Shown: in pieces, positions 477-16,884 of the stretch | How positions within the stretch are numbered: position 1 is the stretch's first letter | How the letters are laid out: each line of letters opens with the position of its first letter | Virus record (IMG/VR): IMGVR_UViG_3300028384_000087 | Location: 1-20,215 of that record | From: a virus | Strand: one strand, 5' to 3' | Length of the DNA stretch: 20,215 nucleotides | Position numbers and translations under genes: made by a program | Notes under the pieces: generated by a model | What the model was told of the DNA's origin: nothing | Databases searched by the model: none | The model's input: only the letters and a program-made list of their open reading frames with translations

Positions 477-619
477 CCAAGATTAAAGAAGATGCCCGCG
501 TTCATCGCCGGGCAGTAGCGCAACCGGCGCCAGAGCCGGCAGTCGAGGCGAAACCAAAGGCTACGCGGAGCAAAGATAGTGACGCTAAAAAGGCACCAAA
601 ATCCAAAGGGCGGTCTTAA
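473..619 (+). CDS. Tiny Lys/Ala/Pro-rich protein, unknown function
   Basis: A 48-residue ORF begins with ATG at 473, overlapping the preceding TGA as ATGA, and ends at TAA 617-619. The product, from MTKIKEDARVHRRAVAQPAP to KAPKSKGRS, is highly basic and looks disordered. It overlaps the following gene by about 40 bp in another frame. The placement (coupled start, no gap, same strand) supports translation, and short basic proteins are frequent in this position in phages. I recognise no family. It could be a nucleic-acid-binding or head-assembly accessory protein, but nothing in the sequence proves this. Confidence 0.5.
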   Translation: MTKIKEDARVHRRAVAQPAPEPAVEAKPKATRSKDSDAKKAPKSKGRS

Positions 620-857
620 CGCAGCCGGGAGAAAACACTTCGGGGTGAAGGCGCCGGTGAAATCCGGTGATAATCCCAGACGCGCTTCCTTTCTCGCGCG
701 TATGGCGGGCGTCTCAGGCCCTGAGCGTGATAGTAAGGGGCGCCCAACCCGGCTATTGTTATCGCTTCGGGCCTGGGGCGCTTCTTCTAAAGCTGATGCT
801 AGGTCTAAGGCTGCGGCTATAAGCAAACGGAATGAGGCGAAAACGCAAAATGCCTAA
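579..857 (+). CDS. DUF6321-like small phage protein
   Basis: A 92-residue protein starts at GTG 579, with GGAG at 567-570 as a plausible ribosome binding site. Residues 8-29 (NPKGGLNAAGRKHFGVKAPVK), then RRASFLARMAGVSGP, KGRPTRLLLSLRAWG and a C-terminal SKADARSKAAAISKR stretch match a widespread phage family. The family shows the order KGGLNxxGRKHxG, a basic spacer, SFxARMxGxxGP, KGxPTR and ALxxW. As I recall, this corresponds to DUF6321, whose function is unknown. It is basic and has no signal peptide or membrane segment. The end overlaps the portal start region. The GTG start is chosen because the family begins just upstream of KGGLN. Confidence 0.75.
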   Translation: MTLKRHQNPKGGLNAAGRKHFGVKAPVKSGDNPRRASFLARMAGVSGPERDSKGRPTRLLLSLRAWGASSKADARSKAAAISKRNEAKTQNA

Positions 858-2412
858 ATTAAATGTACCAAATATCATGGAACGTGAGGCCAAAGCCCAG
901 GCTAGAAAAGATGAGTGGCGTTCTATTTACGAAGATTGTTATGAGTTTGCATTACCGCAGCGCAACCTTTACAGCGGTTACTACGAAGGCAAGGTGGCTG
1001 GCAAAGGCAAGATGGCTAGGGTGTTTGATAGTACAGCTATCCATGCTACGCAGCGGTTTGCTAATCGTCTCCAGGCGGGGCTGTTTCCTCCTTACAAACA
1101 ATGGTGCCGCCTGGAACCTGGCTCAGCAATACCAGAAGATGATAAAGAAACGGCACAAGAGCTGTTTGATGAATATAACAAACGTATGTTTGATACGCTA
1201 CGACAGACAAATTTTGACTTGGCGATGGGCGAGTTTTTGCTAGAGCTGGCTGTAGGTACAGCTGTAATGATGATCACGCCAGGGGATGAGTCAACGCCTG
1301 TTCGCTTTACGCCTATCCCACAGTATCTGGTCGCTTTGGAAGAAGGGCCTTATGGCACTGTTGATAATGTTTATCGTAAACAGCGCATGAAGGCAGAGGC
1401 TATATTGCGAGAGTTCCCAGACGCAAGGTTATCTGTGGAGCTGCAAGAGGCTATCGACAGGGCGCCGGACAAAGAGTTGGATTTGTTCGATTGTGTTTTG
1501 TTTGACCAAGAAACAGGGCGTTATCATTATCACGTTATTTGGCCTTCTAAAAAGCAAGAAATTGTTTATAGAGAAATGCGCAGCAGCCCGTTTATTGTTG
1601 CCAGATACAGCAAGATTGCCGGCGAAATATACGGCCGAGGCCCGCTAGTAACGGCTATTAGCGATATCAAAACACTTAACAAGACCCTAGAGCTGGTATT
1701 GAAAAATGCCAGCCTGGCGATTGCCGGCGTTTATACAGCTGCAGATGATGGGGTTCTTAACCCGCAGAATATTAAGATACAGCCTGGCGCTGTTATCTCT
1801 GTTGCTAGAAACGGCGGGCCGCAGGGCGCGTCACTAACGCCGCTGCCGAAAGCCGGTGACTTTAACACCAGCCAGATTATCATCAATGATTTGCGGATGA
1901 ACATCAAAAAGATATTGATGGATGATACGCTGCCGCCGGACAACATGAGCGCCCGGTCTGCTACGGAAATTGCAGAACGCACCCGCGAGCTGGCTACTAA
2001 CCTGGGCAGTGCTTTCGGCAGATTGATACAGGAAACCCTGGTGCCGATTGTTAGCCGCACCATGTTTGTTATGGATCAACAGGGGTTGATTGACCTGCCG
2101 CTAAAGGTGAACGGTGTCCAGGTTAAGGTAACGCCGGTATCTCCCCTGGCACAAGCACAGAAGCTGCAAGAGATTAACGATGTGGTCCAGTATATGCAGA
2201 TTGCCAATCAGATGGGGCCGCAAGGCCAGGTAACGGTATCTGTCCCGCGTGTGCTTGAGTTTATTGCTGAGCGCTTGGGCATTGAGCAGACGCTGCTTAA
2301 TAACCCAGAAGAACAGCAAATGATGATGCAGCAGATGCAGCAGATGATGATGGCCCAACAGGCGCCGCCGGAAGCAGAGCCGGCGCCCGGAACTGAGGAA
2401 CAAATGGTATGA
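850..2412 (+). CDS. Portal (head-tail connector) protein, T7 gp8 family
   Basis: This is the dodecameric ring at the head vertex through which DNA enters and leaves. It is about 520 residues long, close to T7 gp8 (536). Recognisable family features are the N-terminal EWRSIYEDCYEFALPQRN, FDSTAIHATQRFANRLQAGL, the segment around FPPYKQWCRLEPG, and the C-terminal half with YGRGPLVTAISDIKTLN and the ARSATEIAERTRE helix. The C-terminus is a Met/Gln-rich low-complexity tail with Pro and Ala. An in-frame ATG also exists at 832. I prefer 850 (MPKLNV...) because no ribosome binding site lies before 832, whereas GAGG sits at 834-837, and because the family N-terminus begins near MxKLN. The TGA at 2410-2412 overlaps the next ATG. 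Confidence 0.93.
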   Translation: MPKLNVPNIMEREAKAQARKDEWRSIYEDCYEFALPQRNLYSGYYEGKVAGKGKMARVFDSTAIHATQRFANRLQAGLFPPYKQWCRLEPGSAIPEDDKETAQELFDEYNKRMFDTLRQTNFDLAMGEFLLELAVGTAVMMITPGDESTPVRFTPIPQYLVALEEGPYGTVDNVYRKQRMKAEAILREFPDARLSVELQEAIDRAPDKELDLFDCVLFDQETGRYHYHVIWPSKKQEIVYREMRSSPFIVARYSKIAGEIYGRGPLVTAISDIKTLNKTLELVLKNASLAIAGVYTAADDGVLNPQNIKIQPGAVISVARNGGPQGASLTPLPKAGDFNTSQIIINDLRMNIKKILMDDTLPPDNMSARSATEIAERTRELATNLGSAFGRLIQETLVPIVSRTMFVMDQQGLIDLPLKVNGVQVKVTPVSPLAQAQKLQEINDVVQYMQIANQMGPQGQVTVSVPRVLEFIAERLGIEQTLLNNPEEQQMMMQQMQQMMMAQQAPPEAEPAPGTEEQMV

Positions 2413-2663
2413 TGGAAGAAGGTTGGGACGGCCTATCCCCGGTTGATATAGAACAGCCGAAGGCAGAAGATTTAGATATTGTTTATGCAAAGGCTTTTAA
2501 GACAGCTGAAGGCCAGAAGGTGCTAAGTCACCTTAGAGGCATTACTATCGAGCAGCCAACTTGGGTGCCCGGTGAAGATGCCAGTTTTGGCTATGCTAGA
2601 GAGGGCATGGCAGAGCTGGTTCGTATGATTGAAAAACGCATCAGGAGGAGCGAGAATGGATAA
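2409..2663 (+). CDS. Bbp19-like small phage protein
   Basis: An 84-residue acidic protein starts at ATG 2409, overlapping the portal stop; a second ATG follows immediately at 2412. The central pattern YAKAFKTAEGQKVLSHLRG, then a short variable segment, a Gly/Tyr-containing turn and EGMAELVRMIEKRI is typical of the Bbp19-like family. That family is a small protein regularly encoded between portal and scaffold or capsid genes in podoviruses. Its role is unknown; the genomic position suggests head assembly. The 3' end overlaps the scaffold start region and contains the scaffold ribosome binding site. Confidence 0.75.
   Translation: MMEEGWDGLSPVDIEQPKAEDLDIVYAKAFKTAEGQKVLSHLRGITIEQPTWVPGEDASFGYAREGMAELVRMIEKRIRRSENG
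2643..2648 (+). promoter_or_regulatory. Ribosome binding site that sets the scaffold start
   Basis: A full AGGAGG lies seven bases before the ATG at 2656. It favours that start over the upstream in-frame ATG at 2629, which has no such site and would add nine residues. Confidence 0.8.
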
Positions 2664-3432
2664 TCAAGAAGCACAAGTTGCAGAACAGACGCAAGCGGAT
2701 GCACCGCTAATTAACCCGCAATCAGAGCCGGCAGCCGAAGCGCAGCAAGAGCAGCCGATGCCACTATTCGAAGAACAGCAAGCTGCTACAGATATTGATG
2801 ATGATGATGGCCCGATAGAACGGCCTGATTATTACCCGTCTAAATTTTGGGATGAGGATGGCCCGGATGTTGAGAAACTTGCAAAGAGCTATGCGGAACT
2901 GGAGAAGCAGTTTAAATCTGGGAAGCATAAAGCTCCAGATGGTGATTATGATGTGGCGTCTCTTGTTGATAAAGGTTTGGACCCGGAAGATGAAACAATG
3001 GGCATCTTCTCTGAATGGGCTAAAGAAAATGGCGTCAGCCAAGCTGCGTTTGAAGAGCTGGCTGGGAAAGTCCTAGACGTAAGCAAAGTTGAGGGCGAGC
3101 TTTTCGAAGCAGACCGCCAAGCAGAAATGAGCAAGCTAGGCGAGCGAGCACAAGAGAAAATACAGATGACCGAGCGGTTATTGATGAAAGCGCCTCTTAC
3201 AAATGAAGAGCGCAATGCTCTAGCTGTTGGCTTGGATAACGCAGATAGCATCAATGCTTTTCTTAAATATCACCAGGCGCTAACTAATGAAGGCATCCCG
3301 GTACAGGCAGCACCGTCAGCTCCGTCTATGACGCGAGAGGACCTGGAGTCAGCGATTGCAGACCCTCGTTGGCAGTCTGAACCAGCATGGCGGCAAAAGA
3401 TTGAGAAGCAGTGGATGGAGGCTAATTCCTAG
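2656..3432 (+). CDS. Capsid assembly scaffolding protein (T7 gp9-like)
   Basis: This is a 258-residue, strongly acidic protein. The first 60 residues are Glu/Gln/Ala-rich and disordered-looking, with a D-I-D-D-D-D-G cluster. They are followed by RPDYYPSKFWDEDGPDVEKLAKSYAELEKQF, the conserved P-x-KFWD...LAKSYxELEK motif of podoviral scaffolds, then DYDV and a helical middle. The C-terminus (REDLESAIADPRW...WRQKIEKQWMEA) is a short amphipathic helix of the kind that contacts the coat protein. It directs procapsid assembly and is lost on maturation. Its place between portal and capsid agrees with this role. The start at 2656 is supported by the AGGAGG site. Confidence 0.88.
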   Translation: MDNQEAQVAEQTQADAPLINPQSEPAAEAQQEQPMPLFEEQQAATDIDDDDGPIERPDYYPSKFWDEDGPDVEKLAKSYAELEKQFKSGKHKAPDGDYDVASLVDKGLDPEDETMGIFSEWAKENGVSQAAFEELAGKVLDVSKVEGELFEADRQAEMSKLGERAQEKIQMTERLLMKAPLTNEERNALAVGLDNADSINAFLKYHQALTNEGIPVQAAPSAPSMTREDLESAIADPRWQSEPAWRQKIEKQWMEANS

Positions 3433-8574: not shown

Positions 8575-9753
8575 ATGAGCATGGCGATGCAAGGTTTCCG
8601 GCAAATGCCGCCGACACAGCTACAGGATACAATTAACACCATGCGCACCGGCATTGCGGGCATGGGTGGTGATGGTGTCGATACATTGGAAGAGGTAGAG
8701 CTGCTAGAGCAAGCCGAAACATTGCTTTCAAATATGAACACACAAATTGCTAAAGACCCTCTGTCGCACGCTATAAAGTTAGATATTGTTTCTATGCAGC
8801 CGCTGGATATGTCTTTGCTTGGCTCACAAGACGAAGGTTTGCAGATGCAAGCTAAAGAGCAAGCAAATGCCAGGATTGGTGCGGGTTTACAGGCAGCGTC
8901 TCATTTTGGTACAGAGCCTACGTTTTTGACAGATGAAGAGGCGAAGGCGATAACTAATGTGATGGACAATGGCAATGTAGGGGAGCAAATGGCACTGCTT
9001 ACTGGCCTTTACACCATATTTGGCGAACAGCACGTTTCAGACGTTTTCGCGCAAATTAGCCAAAAGTCTCCAGAGGTAGGGCATATTGCTGGTTTGATTA
9101 TGACCGGCAACCATCAAACAGCTGCAGACGCGCTGGCTGGTATGGATATTTTGCAGCAAGGATATAAGCCGCCAGAATTTACGCCTACTAACACTGACAC
9201 AGTTTACAATGAACAACTTGCGGATGCTTTTGCATTTATGCCAGACTCTATGATTGCCGGCAAAGAGATAGCCAAAGCATTATATGCTAAGCGAGCGCAA
9301 CGAGCCGGGCTAGACCAGTTTGATGAAGCCTTGTGGAACAAAAGTATAAGTGACGCTTTTGGGCAAAGCATGGGTATGGGCGGTGTTCAAGACGTTTTTG
9401 GCAACAAGCTGCTTATGCCTTCTGATGTAGGTGCAGAACAAATAGAAACAGCATTTAACAACATGACGCCAGATGATTTATACAGAGCATCTGGAGTGAA
9501 ATTAGGCGATGAGCTTTTTAAGTTTATTTTTAAACCGGCAGAAGAGGGAATAATATTTGACTCAGATGCAGAGTTTAACAGCGATGATTTTAGGATAGTG
9601 GCTACCGGCAAGGATACATATGTTATTATGATGGGTGAACCTGGCAACACATCATCGCGGATGGTTGAAGGCGCTTATGAAGATGAAATGGGTGGCGCAG
9701 AAGGTAGCAGACGCCTAGAGATTAACATCAAAAAATTGTTGAAGATGCAATGA
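8575..9753 (+). CDS. Internal virion protein (T7 gp15-like), 3' part after the frameshift
   Basis: From its first ATG this frame gives 392 residues, but the same frame is coding from about 8471 (GKLNDQQLAALDAKVGGLGE). The ATG at 8575 has no ribosome binding site and no in-frame ATG, GTG or TTG precedes it in the native part, so it is not an independent gene. The product is helical, with repeated Ala/Gln/Met-rich stretches, and ends ...RRLEINIKKLLKMQ. Segments such as GSQDEGLQMQAKEQANARIG and EEAKAITNVMDNGNVGEQMA match the style of large podoviral internal proteins. Its TGA overlaps the start of the 1097-aa gene (ATGA), so the pair is translated in series. Confidence 0.75.
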   Translation: MSMAMQGFRQMPPTQLQDTINTMRTGIAGMGGDGVDTLEEVELLEQAETLLSNMNTQIAKDPLSHAIKLDIVSMQPLDMSLLGSQDEGLQMQAKEQANARIGAGLQAASHFGTEPTFLTDEEAKAITNVMDNGNVGEQMALLTGLYTIFGEQHVSDVFAQISQKSPEVGHIAGLIMTGNHQTAADALAGMDILQQGYKPPEFTPTNTDTVYNEQLADAFAFMPDSMIAGKEIAKALYAKRAQRAGLDQFDEALWNKSISDAFGQSMGMGGVQDVFGNKLLMPSDVGAEQIETAFNNMTPDDLYRASGVKLGDELFKFIFKPAEEGIIFDSDAEFNSDDFRIVATGKDTYVIMMGEPGNTSSRMVEGAYEDEMGGAEGSRRLEINIKKLLKMQ

Positions 9754-12700
9754 GCTTTGTATTTAAAAAAGCATCAGAGTTTGATTTAGCCCAATATCGA
9801 GGCGTTGATAAGCCAGACCCAGGATTTGTGGAAAGTTTTAGGGCTGCCAAAAAAGCTGCTGAGTTGAACGATACATCTGTTAGCGAAGCAAACGCATTAG
9901 AAGAAGTGTGGGCGCCTATTATCGAAGAGATGAACAACAGAGGCTCTGGGCAAACTTTTTACAATCCGGCCACTTCCTACAGAACAGCTATATTTGACGA
10001 GAACATACAAGAAGCTAATTATTCGAAAGCTATTGGCAGTATATTTCAAGAAATAGAAACAAACGATGAGTTTGCAGATTTGCGTGGCAAGTTCGATAGA
10101 GATACATTATTTGAGCAAGCTGCACAATTAGCCCGCGATAGCCGTCAAGATTATTTAAACACAGTACAAAACATATCAACCACATCATCTACAATCGGGC
10201 AATTCGCCGGCGGCGCTGTTGGCGTAATAGATGATCCTGTACTTGTTGGTTCAATGTTATTTGGTGGCGCAAAAGGTTTGTGGCAAATGGCTTTCCAAGA
10301 GGCAGCGTTAGGCGCCGGTTCTGAGGCTATTATACAAACTAAAGTAAAGGAATGGTATGCCAGCACTGGCCAAGAGTACACGGATGAGCAATTTTGGAAC
10401 GCTGTAAAGTTTGGTGCAGCTGCCGGTTTTGCGACACCATTTGCTTTTAGAGGTGCTGGAGAAGTTATCAACGTAGGCGGCAAAGCCGTTAACTTGACCG
10501 TAGACCAGCTAAAGTCTGGGGTAGCTGCGCTGCGCTCAGCTGGCGTTAAATCAACTTCAGAAGGCCGGCTGTTGGAACAGCTGGCAGATGATGTGCAAGC
10601 TGTTGATGAAATAAACCCGCTTGCGTCAGATGTTGAGATGCGAGCACAAGCAGAGCATCAGTCGCGCGTACAGGACGCTACAGCGGCTGTAGAGCGCAAC
10701 CAGGCGCCTACTATACCAGATGTTCCTAAAGTGCCTCCCAGGGCCGCAGAATCGGCTTATGAGGCAGATAACCTAGATGGTACTATTTACCGCTTTGACC
10801 CGGATGAGCTGCAAGTAGATGCAGAGCTTTTTCAGTTTAAGTCCGGCGGTGATGAGTTTGGTGTAACTGAGCGGTTGCAAGGCATCAAAACTTGGGATGC
10901 AGTAAAAGCCGGCCAGGTAACTGTATTTGAAAAAGCTGACGGTTCTCGCTTTATTGCAGATGGCCACCAGCGTATGGGGTTGGCCAAGCGCATCAAAGCA
11001 CAAGACCCGAGCCAGGATGTGCGCTTATATGGGCACATATTACGCGAAGTAGATGGGTATACTGAAGCTGATGCAAGAGTTATTGCAGCTGTTAAAAATA
11101 TTGCTGAAGGTACAGGAACAGCATTAGACGCAGCTAAAATACTCAAGGATGCACCAGAGCGAATTGGGGAACTCCCCCCCAAGTCTCGCTTGGTGCAGCA
11201 AGCAAATGGCCTGGTAATGCTGTCAAACAAGGCATTTGGCGCAATTATCAACAATGTTGTGCCGGCTAACTATGGGGCTATAGTAGGGCGGTTAATACCT
11301 GATGATGAGGGTATGCAAGACGCAGCTATAGCTGTTTTAAACAAAACGCAACCAGCAAATGAGTTTCAAGCAGAAAGTATTGTGCGGCAAGTTATGGACG
11401 CCGGCGCTGAAACTAGGACACAAGAAAGCTTGTTCGGCGAAGAAATAATAACAGAAAGCTATTTTGCAGAACGTGCAAAAGTATTAGACCAGGCAGTTAA
11501 GCAACTAAGCAAAGACAAAGCTGCGTTTGCAAGCCTAGTACGCAATCAACAGCGCTTGGAAGCAGAAGGCAATCAGCTAGCCCAGGCGGCAAACCAAAGG
11601 AGAGCAGAAAATGACTCCCAAGCAATCGGGCTCCTCCAGGCCCTTGCCAACAGAAAAGGGGCGCTCTCAGACGCCCTCACAGCCGCAGCCAAACAAGCCA
11701 GAGAAGCGGGCAGCTACGGACGCGCTACTGACGGATTCATCGAAGCTGTCAGACGAGCAATTCAAGAAGGCGATTTCGATAGGCTCGCGGCTGGCGATGC
11801 TGGACGCATTGTCAATGATACAGCGCAAGGCAGCCCTCGCCCGGCAGAACCAGAACCAGACGTAAGCCTGTTCGATGATCCAAAAGGCCAGGCAACGCGC
11901 GAACAAGCTGACCAATTAGAAAATGACATTAACTCTGAGATTGCTGCAGAAACAGAACAAAACATATTTGTTAGAGACGAAGGCAACCCAGAGGCTTTTA
12001 TCTCGTATGAGCTTCAGCTGAAGAAAGCGCAAGGCTTTAAGTCATTAGAAGATTTGATGCAGCGCGGCGCTAAAAACCATGAAATGCTTACAAAAGCAAT
12101 AGCAGAAGCAGCGGAAACAGTAGGCGCAAAACCTAAAGCAGCGCCATTAAAAGGCGCAGCGCGGGTGCAAGAAAAGGTGCAAGATAAATACGCTGGCGAT
12201 TTGAATAGAATAGTAGACGTTGCTAGAGGCGGTATTGATGCGCCTACTCCAGCAAGCGCTAATGATTTTGTAAATGCTTTAGCGCGCAAATTTAAGGTGT
12301 TGGATGAAGGTTGGACAGTTACGCCTGAAGGTTACTTTGACAGAAAACTGTCAGTAGTGATGCCTGATGGGCAGCTGGCAGAGGTTCAAATTTGGGCTCC
12401 GGGGCTGTTAGAGGCAAAAGAAGTCCGAGGCGGCCATAAGCTGTACGAAAAATACAGAAGCAAAGAAACACCAGAGGCCGAAAGACAAAAAGCTCTGGAA
12501 GATATGAAAGCTCTATATGGCAGTGTGGCAGATGATCTGCCAGTAGAATGGCGCGAAATTATAGGCGGTCAAAAGGAATCAGGCATTGTGCCGCCTAACC
12601 GGGCAACTAAAGAAGAGATGAGCTCTATAGAAACCTCTGGAGAGCCTTCATCATTAAGGACTTCTTTAGACGATATTGGCCTCCAGGAGCCATCAGCCCC

Positions 12701-13043
12701 TAAAGATATCATTGACCCATCATCGCCTTCTATGGCGGGGATGGACTTGTCTACTAAGAAAAATCTCATTCAAGCCTCCAAAACAAATATAGATATCGCT
12801 ACAGAAGAAGTCAAGCCGCCAGCGGGATTGATGGCTTTACTGCCTGAAGATGCGCGAGCTGAGCTGTCCAAGATGTTTGATGAAGTAGACGCATACAGAA
12901 CAGAAGAGGGTAGGATACCTATAGGCAGTGAGCTTGATGAAAATGGCAATGCGATTGCTGTTACTATGACCAGGCAAGAAATGTTAGATGAATTTGAGCA
13001 AGACAGAAAAATGTTAGATAGATTAAGGGATTGCGTCAAATGA
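9750..13043 (+). CDS. Large ejected virion protein with ParB/DdrB-like and RelA/SpoT-like domains
   Basis: This 1097-residue protein sits in the T7 gp16 position and probably enters the cell with the DNA. Residues 1-140 are helical. Residues ~147-190 and ~215-240 are Gly/Ala-rich and hydrophobic and may insert in membrane. Residues ~348-475 resemble the ParB/DdrB-like domain: a strand with YRFDPDELQVD, then FIADGHQRMGLAKR (401-414). Residues ~808-905 resemble a RelA/SpoT-type nucleotidyltransferase: KYAGDLNRIVDVARGG (D823), PEGYFDRKL (861-867), AEVQIW (E878) and GHKLYEKYR (H896). The two enzyme-like domains joined by disordered linkers recall phage polyvalent proteins. Substrates are unknown. 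No lytic transglycosylase motif is seen. Part of residues 620-705 overlaps another ORF. Confidence 0.8.
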   Translation: MSFVFKKASEFDLAQYRGVDKPDPGFVESFRAAKKAAELNDTSVSEANALEEVWAPIIEEMNNRGSGQTFYNPATSYRTAIFDENIQEANYSKAIGSIFQEIETNDEFADLRGKFDRDTLFEQAAQLARDSRQDYLNTVQNISTTSSTIGQFAGGAVGVIDDPVLVGSMLFGGAKGLWQMAFQEAALGAGSEAIIQTKVKEWYASTGQEYTDEQFWNAVKFGAAAGFATPFAFRGAGEVINVGGKAVNLTVDQLKSGVAALRSAGVKSTSEGRLLEQLADDVQAVDEINPLASDVEMRAQAEHQSRVQDATAAVERNQAPTIPDVPKVPPRAAESAYEADNLDGTIYRFDPDELQVDAELFQFKSGGDEFGVTERLQGIKTWDAVKAGQVTVFEKADGSRFIADGHQRMGLAKRIKAQDPSQDVRLYGHILREVDGYTEADARVIAAVKNIAEGTGTALDAAKILKDAPERIGELPPKSRLVQQANGLVMLSNKAFGAIINNVVPANYGAIVGRLIPDDEGMQDAAIAVLNKTQPANEFQAESIVRQVMDAGAETRTQESLFGEEIITESYFAERAKVLDQAVKQLSKDKAAFASLVRNQQRLEAEGNQLAQAANQRRAENDSQAIGLLQALANRKGALSDALTAAAKQAREAGSYGRATDGFIEAVRRAIQEGDFDRLAAGDAGRIVNDTAQGSPRPAEPEPDVSLFDDPKGQATREQADQLENDINSEIAAETEQNIFVRDEGNPEAFISYELQLKKAQGFKSLEDLMQRGAKNHEMLTKAIAEAAETVGAKPKAAPLKGAARVQEKVQDKYAGDLNRIVDVARGGIDAPTPASANDFVNALARKFKVLDEGWTVTPEGYFDRKLSVVMPDGQLAEVQIWAPGLLEAKEVRGGHKLYEKYRSKETPEAERQKALEDMKALYGSVADDLPVEWREIIGGQKESGIVPPNRATKEEMSSIETSGEPSSLRTSLDDIGLQEPSAPKDIIDPSSPSMAGMDLSTKKNLIQASKTNIDIATEEVKPPAGLMALLPEDARAELSKMFDEVDAYRTEEGRIPIGSELDENGNAIAVTMTRQEMLDEFEQDRKMLDRLRDCVK
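11596..11602 (+). promoter_or_regulatory. Ribosome binding site for an embedded ORF
   Basis: AAAGGAG lies eight bases before the ATG at 11611, inside the 1097-aa gene. It is as strong as those of the capsid-side and fibre genes and serves no start in the main frame, so its presence here needs an explanation. Confidence 0.5.
11611..11865 (+). CDS. Candidate overlapping gene inside the 1097-aa gene, unknown function
   Basis: This is an 84-residue ORF in the +1 frame relative to the host gene. The product has a Pro/Ser/Lys-rich disordered first half (MTPKQSGSSRPLPTEKGRSQ onward) and a helical second half (SDEQFKKAISIGSRLAMLDA, then LSMIQRKAALARQNQNQT). It is basic, with no signal peptide or lipobox, so it is not an Rz1-type spanin. 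Support comes from the perfect SD at 11596-11602 and from a GC-rich island that coincides with the ORF: a hand count gives about 58% GC over 11641-11880, against about 40% in 11461-11520 and 11941-12000. Against it, minus-strand frames are also open in this GC-rich stretch, so openness alone proves little. I recognise no family. Confidence 0.45.
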   Translation: MTPKQSGSSRPLPTEKGRSQTPSQPQPNKPEKRAATDALLTDSSKLSDEQFKKAISIGSRLAMLDALSMIQRKAALARQNQNQT

Positions 13044-15498: not shown

Positions 15499-16884
15499 AT
15501 GGCCGATATCCCTATTAACGCGATAGACAGACGCATCCAGTTTACCGGGAATACTGGTACAGGGCCGTTTGCATTTACTTTTAACATCCTGGCAGACAGC
15601 GATATCGTAGTGTATAAAAACGATACGCTGCTTACGCTTACTACAGATTATACCATTTCGACTAGCGCGGATGGCACCGGCAGCGTAACGCTTACTGGCA
15701 GCGGTAATGGTACGGCGCTTGTCTCGTCTGATTTCTTAACGATTGTCGGCGGGCGCCAGCTTGCCAGGACAACTGATTTTGTTACTGCCGGCGATTTGTT
15801 GGCCAGCTCATTGAACGAGCAGCTGGATAGTAACGTGATCATGGTTCAGCAGCTGGATGAAAAGATTGAACGTACTTTGCGTATCGACCAATCTGATGTT
15901 ACAGCTGATATGGTGCTGCCTAAAAAAGATAACCGGGCTAACAAAACCCTGGGATTTGATGCCAATGGTTTGCCGGCGGTTGGTGAAGAGATTGGCGATT
16001 ATAAAGGTAATTGGGCAGCGAGCACGACCTATGCCATCCGTGACCTGGTAAAAGATACCAGCACAAACAACATTTTCCGGGCTAATACTGCGCATACGTC
16101 TAGCGGTTCTCAGCCTCTTACAACTAATACCGATAGCGCAAAGTGGGATTTGATTGTAGATGCGGCATCTGCGACTACATCTGCTAATGCGGCTGCGGCA
16201 AGTGCTACAGCAGCCGCCAATAGTGCCACACAGGCTACTACAAATGGTGCGGCTCAAGTTGCTTTGGCTACAACACAAGCCACAAATTCCGCAACATCAG
16301 CCACAGCATCGGCATCATCAGCCACAGATGCTCAGGCAAGTGAAGATGAGGCAGAGGCTTGGGCTATTAAAACAAATGGTGAGGCTGTCACTGGACAAGG
16401 CTATTCATCTAAAGCATGGGCTACTGGCGGTACAGGCGTTAGTGACACCGCTGGTTCTGGAGCGTCTAAAGAGTGGGCTGTTGAGCAGTCTGGAACTGTA
16501 GATGGTACTGAGTATTCTGCAAAAGAGTATGCCATTGGATCACAAGCTGGTAATTCAAGTGGCTCTGCAAAACAGTGGGCTTTAGGTGGCGGTGCATCAT
16601 ACGCAACAAACACTACGGTTGATGGCTCAAACTACTCAGCAAGGTATTGGGCAGAGCAGGCGGCTGCAAGTGCAGATTCCGTAGATGACATTTACCTTGG
16701 CGCAAAGTCATCAGCCCCAACACTAGATAATGACGGCAACGCACTGCAAACTGGTGCGCTTTATTTTAATAATAGTTCTGATGAATTGTATGTTTGGAAC
16801 GGCACAAGCTGGCAAGTTACAGCAGTAACCGCTTCCGGTTTTGCCACGGCTGGCTTTTCGATAGCCATGAGTATTGCGTTATAA
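15499..16884 (+). CDS. Tail fibre protein with T7-gp17-type N-terminus
   Basis: This is a 461-residue fibre. Residues 1-150 are the virion-attachment domain of T7-like fibres: FTGNTGTGPFAFTFNILADS, TTDYTIS, then FLTIVGGRQLARTTDFVTAG and EQLDSNVIMVQQLDEKIERT. Residues ~165-200 (GNWAASTTYAIRDLV...FRANTAHTSSG) resemble a small carbohydrate-binding module. Residues ~215-285 are an Ala/Ser/Thr heptad-like shaft. Residues ~288-385 hold W-A...Y-S-A-K repeats. The end (DDIYLGAKSSAPTLDNDGNA, then GALYFNNSSDELYVWNGTSW) is a module found near the tips of many marine phage fibres. It trimerises and binds host surface glycans or another tip protein. AAAGGAG at 15485-15491 supports the start. Confidence 0.88.
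   Translation: MADIPINAIDRRIQFTGNTGTGPFAFTFNILADSDIVVYKNDTLLTLTTDYTISTSADGTGSVTLTGSGNGTALVSSDFLTIVGGRQLARTTDFVTAGDLLASSLNEQLDSNVIMVQQLDEKIERTLRIDQSDVTADMVLPKKDNRANKTLGFDANGLPAVGEEIGDYKGNWAASTTYAIRDLVKDTSTNNIFRANTAHTSSGSQPLTTNTDSAKWDLIVDAASATTSANAAAASATAAANSATQATTNGAAQVALATTQATNSATSATASASSATDAQASEDEAEAWAIKTNGEAVTGQGYSSKAWATGGTGVSDTAGSGASKEWAVEQSGTVDGTEYSAKEYAIGSQAGNSSGSAKQWALGGGASYATNTTVDGSNYSARYWAEQAAASADSVDDIYLGAKSSAPTLDNDGNALQTGALYFNNSSDELYVWNGTSWQVTAVTASGFATAGFSIAMSIAL
16350..16660 (+). repeat. Protein-level W-A / Y-S-(A/S)-K repeats in the fibre
   Basis: Tryptophans at residues 288, 326 and 360 begin units that reach YSSK (302), YSAK (339) and YSAR (379), with spacings of 38 and 34 residues; further Trp residues lie at 307 and 384. 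The DNA copies have diverged, so this is an old protein repeat, not a recent tandem duplication. Such units usually form a beta-structured trimeric shaft. Confidence 0.6.

What the first reader, a model, noticed from the sequence alone, without database searches (positions are those of the whole stretch)
11596..11865. Candidate overlapping gene with its own ribosome binding site
A perfect AAAGGAG eight bases before an ATG opens an 84-codon frame inside the large ejected-protein gene. GC content rises to about 58% over 11641-11880, against about 40% in flanking lines, and the main-frame codon use shifts (ctc, gcc and ggg become frequent) exactly over this ORF. This is what dual coding constraint, or an inserted segment, would produce. 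The protein is basic: Pro-rich, then helical.
Basis: seen in the sequence. Interest (0 to 1): 0.7.

Follow-up and report, generated by a model that had tools for sequence, protein, structure and literature searches.

The report
Hidden gene nested in phage gene
A small protein of about 84 amino acids is written in a second reading frame inside a large gene of T7-like, mostly marine phages; relatives show that evolution has preserved both proteins at once, so this is very probably a real gene that annotation has missed, although what the protein does is still unknown.

Summary
The ORF at 11611-11865 (+1 frame of the 1097-codon gene 9750-13043) has AAAGGAG 8 nt before its ATG. An ORF-blind search with the upstream domain of the large gene recovered 80 viral loci; all 78 not cut off by a contig end carry the ORF at the same place. 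Synonymous codon identity of the main frame is about 0.40 upstream, 0.54-0.78 inside the ORF and 0.40-0.46 downstream. In the ORF core, variation moves from main codon position 3 to position 1, the ORF's wobble position. In one clade the start has moved about 90 nt downstream, and the constraint begins there too. Homologues without the ORF show no such constraint, and a longer alternative ORF in the portal gene is broken in 10 of 11 relatives. RNA structure, insertion, frameshifting and chance are disfavoured. The product has a disordered basic N-terminus and one conserved C-terminal helix, with no convincing match in Pfam, PHROGs, PDB or cultured phages. Translation is inferred, not shown. 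Function is unknown; my best guess is a late small partner of the internal virion protein that hosts it (about 0.35).

The parts
11596..11602 (+). Shine-Dalgarno sequence AAAGGAG of the nested gene, 8 nt before the ATG
   Evidence: Read directly. Duplex energy with anti-SD -8.7 kcal/mol vs mean -2.3 for synonymous recodings of the main frame, P=0.03 for this sequence. SD-like in most relatives.
11611..11865 (+). Nested overlapping gene, 84 codons + TAA, +1 relative to the host gene
   Evidence: Present with start and similar length across the group A/C clade. Synonymous constraint in the host frame.
11611..11700 (+). N-terminal part of the product (aa 1-30): disordered, basic, Ser/Gln/Pro/Lys/Arg-rich; overlaps a conserved helical part of the host protein
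   Evidence: AlphaFold2 pLDDT about 50; host-frame identity 0.71 vs ORF-frame 0.54; host model helical here.
11752..11859 (+). C-terminal helix of the product (aa 48-83), motif LSDxQxxxAIxxGxxLAMLDALSMxxRK; overlaps a predicted disordered linker of the host protein
   Evidence: AlphaFold2 pLDDT 94-98 over aa 51-80; ORF-frame identity 0.59 vs host-frame 0.49; synonymous codon identity up to 0.86; host model pLDDT about 44 over residues 161-180.
9750..13043 (+). Host gene, 1097 codons: virion-module protein (probable internal virion/ejection protein), conserved domain about aa 345-620
   Evidence: sits between tail-tube B/internal virion genes and a virion structural gene.
10875..11585 (+). Upstream domain of the host gene used as the ORF-independent search query
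   Evidence: Alignment A2; 419 relatives in viral contigs, best 80 kept.

Best explanation
Bases 11611-11865 are a genuine protein-coding gene nested in the +1 frame of a T7-like phage virion gene. It is made by independent ribosome initiation at its own Shine-Dalgarno and start codon on the host gene's mRNA. It probably arose by overprinting, since the host domain is found in relatives without it. Both frames are under purifying selection: the N-terminal half is held mainly by the host protein and the C-terminal helix mainly by the nested protein. SHOWN (computationally): conservation of frame, start and stop region; frame-specific synonymous constraint; a constraint boundary that follows a relocated start; absence in outgroup clades. 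INFERRED: that it is translated. CONJECTURED (about 0.35, not covered by the confidence below): the product, a basic disordered tail plus one conserved helix, is a late small virion or assembly partner of the host internal virion protein. Every copy found is nested in that gene.
For: (1) ORF-independent sampling: loci found only with the upstream domain have the +1 ORF in all 78 not cut off by a contig end. (2) Synonymous codon identity 0.42 upstream, 0.70 in the ORF (0.79 in the C half), 0.45 downstream, 34 sequences; ORF-independent subset of 27: 0.36-0.41, then 0.54-0.76, then 0.40-0.46 downstream. (3) Differences at host codon positions 1/2/3 shift from .31/.21/.61 upstream to .40/.29/.27 in the ORF core, i.e. 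to the ORF's own third position; in the C part ORF-frame identity exceeds host-frame identity.59 vs .49. (4) In L211/L227/L218 the N-half frame is closed and a short ORF starts at ATG +115/118, with AAGGAG before it in L211 and L227; synonymous identity is 0.28-0.39 before that start and 0.60-0.77 after it. In L262-L264 the usual ATG is lost and an upstream ATG preceded by AAGGAG is present. (5) Homologues without the ORF show no rise (0.36-0.43 at the site vs 0.47-0.59 upstream). (6) Synonymous recoding expects 3.2 stops per sequence. (7) Anti-SD pairing -6.4 observed vs -2.8 kcal/mol recoded, mean of 45. (8) The 126-codon alternative ORF in the portal gene has stops in 10 of 11 relatives.
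Against: There is no translation evidence (no Ribo-seq or proteomics). No cultured phage carries a recognisable copy by tblastn with four members at E<=1. The SD is weak in some lineages (L018/L019 -3.2, L331 -0.6 kcal/mol), and for many single sequences it is not significantly stronger than recoded versions (median P 0.09). L218 has only AAAAAGGG (-4.4). The functional guess rests only on genomic linkage and gross features; nesting alone would link any function to the host gene.
Confidence: 0.93

Rival explanations
1. The constraint comes from a nucleotide-level element (RNA structure, packaging or regulatory signal), and the open +1 frame is a side effect.
For: Reduced synonymous variability alone cannot distinguish protein from nucleotide constraint.
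Against: RNA folding no better than shuffles (z=0.08); no Rfam match; variation specifically permitted at the ORF's wobble position; constraint boundary follows the relocated start codon.
Confidence: 0.02
2. The +1 segment is made by programmed frameshifting from the host gene, as a C-terminal alternative tail, rather than by internal initiation.
For: Same mRNA and +1 frame; the frame is open for some codons upstream of the ATG in several members.
Against: A start codon is kept at the same column in most of group A, and lineages that lose it have another start, usually SD-preceded; the constraint begins at the SD/start; the short-form lineage closes the frame just upstream of its new ATG. Slippery sites were not searched for.
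Confidence: 0.03
3. Chance open frame or an inserted GC-rich segment with unusual codon use.
For: The GC and codon shift is real.
Against: The host frame is homologous across the stretch in all relatives; zero stops in 34 divergent sequences vs 3.2 expected each; another long ORF in this window behaves as chance predicts.
Confidence: 0.01
4. Functional rival: the product is a host-directed or nucleic-acid-binding late protein rather than a virion/assembly partner.
For: Median pI 10.6, basic disordered N-terminus, no Cys, small size.
Against: The basic composition may partly be a by-product of the overlap with a conserved host helix; the short-form lineage drops much of the N-terminus and keeps the helix; location among late virion genes.
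Confidence: 0.3
5. Functional rival: the product is a lysis protein, as phage Rz1 nested in Rz is.
For: Nested +1 architecture like Rz1 in Rz (general knowledge).
Against: No Cys in any of 41 members, so no lipobox; best 19-residue mean hydropathy 1.13, so no obvious transmembrane segment; host gene lies in the virion module.
Confidence: 0.02

Closest known systems
Phage lambda Rz1 nested in Rz (from general knowledge)
   Same: Short gene entirely inside a longer same-strand gene in the +1 frame, own start, small product
   Different: Rz1 is an outer-membrane lipoprotein of the lysis cassette; this product has no Cys or membrane segment and sits in the virion module
phiX174 gene E inside gene D (from general knowledge)
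   Same: Overprinted gene with its own ribosome binding site inside a virion-assembly gene
   Different: E is a membrane lysis protein of an ssDNA phage; this product has no predicted membrane segment
T7 small virion proteins gp6.7 and gp7.3 (from general knowledge)
   Same: Small late proteins of T7-like phages; an analogy for the proposed role only
   Different: Not nested; no sequence relation found (PHROGs scan of 41 members gave nothing)
Methylophilales phage MEP301, closest cultured phage by portal protein (61.6%)
   Same: Same gene order and homologous portal, capsid and tail-tube genes
   Different: Different ejection genes: no detectable homologue of the host gene and no nested ORF, so the nested gene goes with its host gene

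Membership tests
Conserved nested overlapping gene (general class) | Frame conserved beyond expectation in divergent relatives | tested here: met
Conserved nested overlapping gene (general class) | Excess synonymous constraint in the host frame confined to the overlap | tested here: met
Conserved nested overlapping gene (general class) | Amino-acid-level selection in the second frame (variation at its wobble position) | tested here: met
Conserved nested overlapping gene (general class) | Own initiation signals | tested here: met
   Start codon conserved and SD-like sequence in most lineages; weak in some
Conserved nested overlapping gene (general class) | Translation demonstrated | not testable with these tools
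   No Ribo-seq or proteomics available
Rz1-type spanin | Lipobox cysteine | tested here: not met
   0 Cys in 41 members
Rz1-type spanin | Nested in an Rz-like i-spanin gene | tested here: not met
   Host gene is a large virion-module protein of 1097 codons
Holin or membrane lysis protein (E-like) | Transmembrane segment | tested here: not met
   Best 19-aa mean hydropathy at most 1.13
Any described protein family | Profile match | tested here: not met
   PHROGs none; PDB profile none; Pfam only isolated weak matches in one or two of 41 members

The most novel reading that the evidence does not exclude
The nested gene is older than the T7-like clade in which it is universal. It already existed in the ancestor shared with a clade of Rhodobacterales-type phages (L181, L182, L206, L221), where dual coding is also visible, and its start site has been moved at least twice while the C-terminal helix stayed fixed. 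It would be an ancient overprinted small protein that co-evolves with a phage internal virion protein.
Probability: 0.5. Interest if true: 0.72.

Novelty: new member of a known kind. Interest (0 to 1): 0.62.

Why it matters
Fully nested same-strand genes are easily missed by standard gene callers, which disfavour overlapping frames. This family is kept throughout a clade of 54 distinct host-gene sequences in IMG/VR (124 loci matched one ORF-profile search), yet no model in Pfam or PHROGs describes it. It gives a clean natural experiment on overprinting: lineages with and without the gene, and with relocated starts, where the synonymous constraint follows the start codon. It adds a candidate small protein to the virion module of uncultured, mostly marine phages.

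Tried and rejected
RNA structure as cause of the constraint: z=0.08, no Rfam match. Inserted segment: host frame homologous throughout. Lysis/spanin: no Cys, no transmembrane segment. Known family: PHROGs, PDB and the phages collection negative; Pfam matches sporadic and to unrelated domains. Standalone copies of the ORF: none; all 80 kept loci of an ORF-profile search are nested in +1. Lineage clue from a T7-type RNA polymerase: no hit in 11 records, but the control genomes did not ring either, so nothing follows. Ruegeria phage 45A6 as a cultured carrier: its +1 frame is open with an ATG but shows no clear synonymous constraint with its two nearest relatives, so it is not claimed. Papers on pelagiphage overlapping genes: none found. 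A fold search of the model was not run because a single helix would match almost anything.

Full report
OBSERVATION. The window is a 20.2 kb virus record holding the structural module of a T7-like podovirus: portal, scaffold, capsid, tail tubes, internal virion genes and tail fibres. The closest cultured phage by portal is Methylophilales phage MEP301 (61.6%). The ORF, SD and spacing are exactly as reported. GC and codon shifts are real, though the flanks are 43-48% GC rather than 40%, and GGG enrichment is weak.

RELATIVES. A search with the ORF product found 7 relatives in IMG/VR and a profile found 67. In all of them the ORF is open and lies in the +1 frame of a long open host gene; the start is in the same alignment column or the next one, and the length is usually 82-84 codons. 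Because that sampling selects for the ORF, I repeated it with only the host domain upstream of the ORF. Of 419 relatives the best 80 were kept; two run into a contig end at the site, and the other 78 all carry the ORF, some with variant motifs such as LAMQEAISML or LATLDAASMV.

SELECTION. Over 34 sequences sharing 57% nucleotide identity on average, the fraction of conserved host residues encoded by the identical codon is 0.42 upstream, 0.70 within the ORF, up to 0.86 near its C-terminus, and 0.45 downstream. Host codon position 3, normally the most variable, becomes the least variable in the ORF core, and position 1, the ORF's third position, the most variable. The two frames share the burden: host-frame identity 0.71 vs 0.54 for the ORF frame in the N part, 0.49 vs 0.59 in the C part. 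AlphaFold2 models agree: the host protein is helical where the ORF product is mostly disordered, and disordered where the ORF product has its confident helix (the host model has only moderate confidence).

NATURAL EXPERIMENTS. A tree of 86 distinct host domains places all 48 group A sequences (ORF score above 60) and six of eight group C sequences (score 30-60) in one clade of 54 (support 88/91). Inside it, L211, L227 and L218 have lost the open N half and start at a new ATG about 90 nt downstream; there the host synonymous constraint is absent before the new start (0.28-0.39) and present after it (0.60-0.77), though from only three sequences. L262-L264 lost the usual ATG and have an upstream ATG preceded by AAGGAG. 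Outgroup homologues (Rhizobiales prophages and others) have no ORF and no rise in constraint. In a neighbouring clade of Rhodobacterales-type phages, L181/L182/L206/L221 show dual coding (0.82-0.88 vs 0.53), while the L080 and L184 subgroups do not show it clearly. As a control within the same window, the 126-codon +1 ORF in the portal gene is interrupted in 10 of 11 relatives.

WHAT IT IS. I conclude that this is a nested, overprinted gene translated by internal initiation. The SD-like sequence is stronger than expected from host coding on average (-6.4 vs -2.8 kcal/mol) but not in every member. Alternatives based on RNA structure, insertion, chance or frameshifting are disfavoured for the reasons given under the rivals.

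FUNCTION. Nothing in Pfam, PHROGs, PDB or the cultured phage collection identifies it. It is not a spanin or holin by sequence. Every copy found is nested in this virion gene, and MEP301, which shares the head and tail genes but not this host gene, lacks it. The most economical guess is a small late partner of the host internal virion protein, at roughly 0.35; a nucleic-acid or host target is nearly as likely.

LIMITS. Everything is comparative; no expression data exist here. The groups A, B, C and N were defined by ORF score, with B and N members picked by hand. Differences in synonymous identity were not given formal P values, and related sequences are not independent. The paper searches covered open-access texts only, so an earlier description elsewhere cannot be excluded.

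Noticed in passing
window 863-1243 (+): A 126-codon +1 ORF inside the portal gene; its translation matches 11 relatives but 10 of them have stops, so it is probably spurious.
   Followed up: yes
window 16160-16501 (+): A 113-codon alternative-frame ORF inside the tail fibre gene; no match in 11 related records, which is uninformative because fibres vary.
   Followed up: partly
window 481-720: A second GC-rich patch (0.59) spanning the stretch before and the start of the ORF at 579-857 (best PHROG match 4689, unknown function).
   Followed up: no
window 2629-3432 (+): The scaffold gene is listed from a TTG, but AGGAG-spaced ATG matches at 2643 and 2646 suggest that the true start is downstream.
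   Followed up: no
L181, L182, L206, L221: Rhodobacterales-type phage contigs with a shorter nested +1 ORF (56-61 codons from ATG or GTG) that also shows dual-coding constraint.
   Followed up: partly
L164 (PANU01000051.1): A contig binned as a Flavobacteriaceae MAG carries the host gene and the nested ORF; it may be a phage contig mis-binned to that genome.
   Followed up: no
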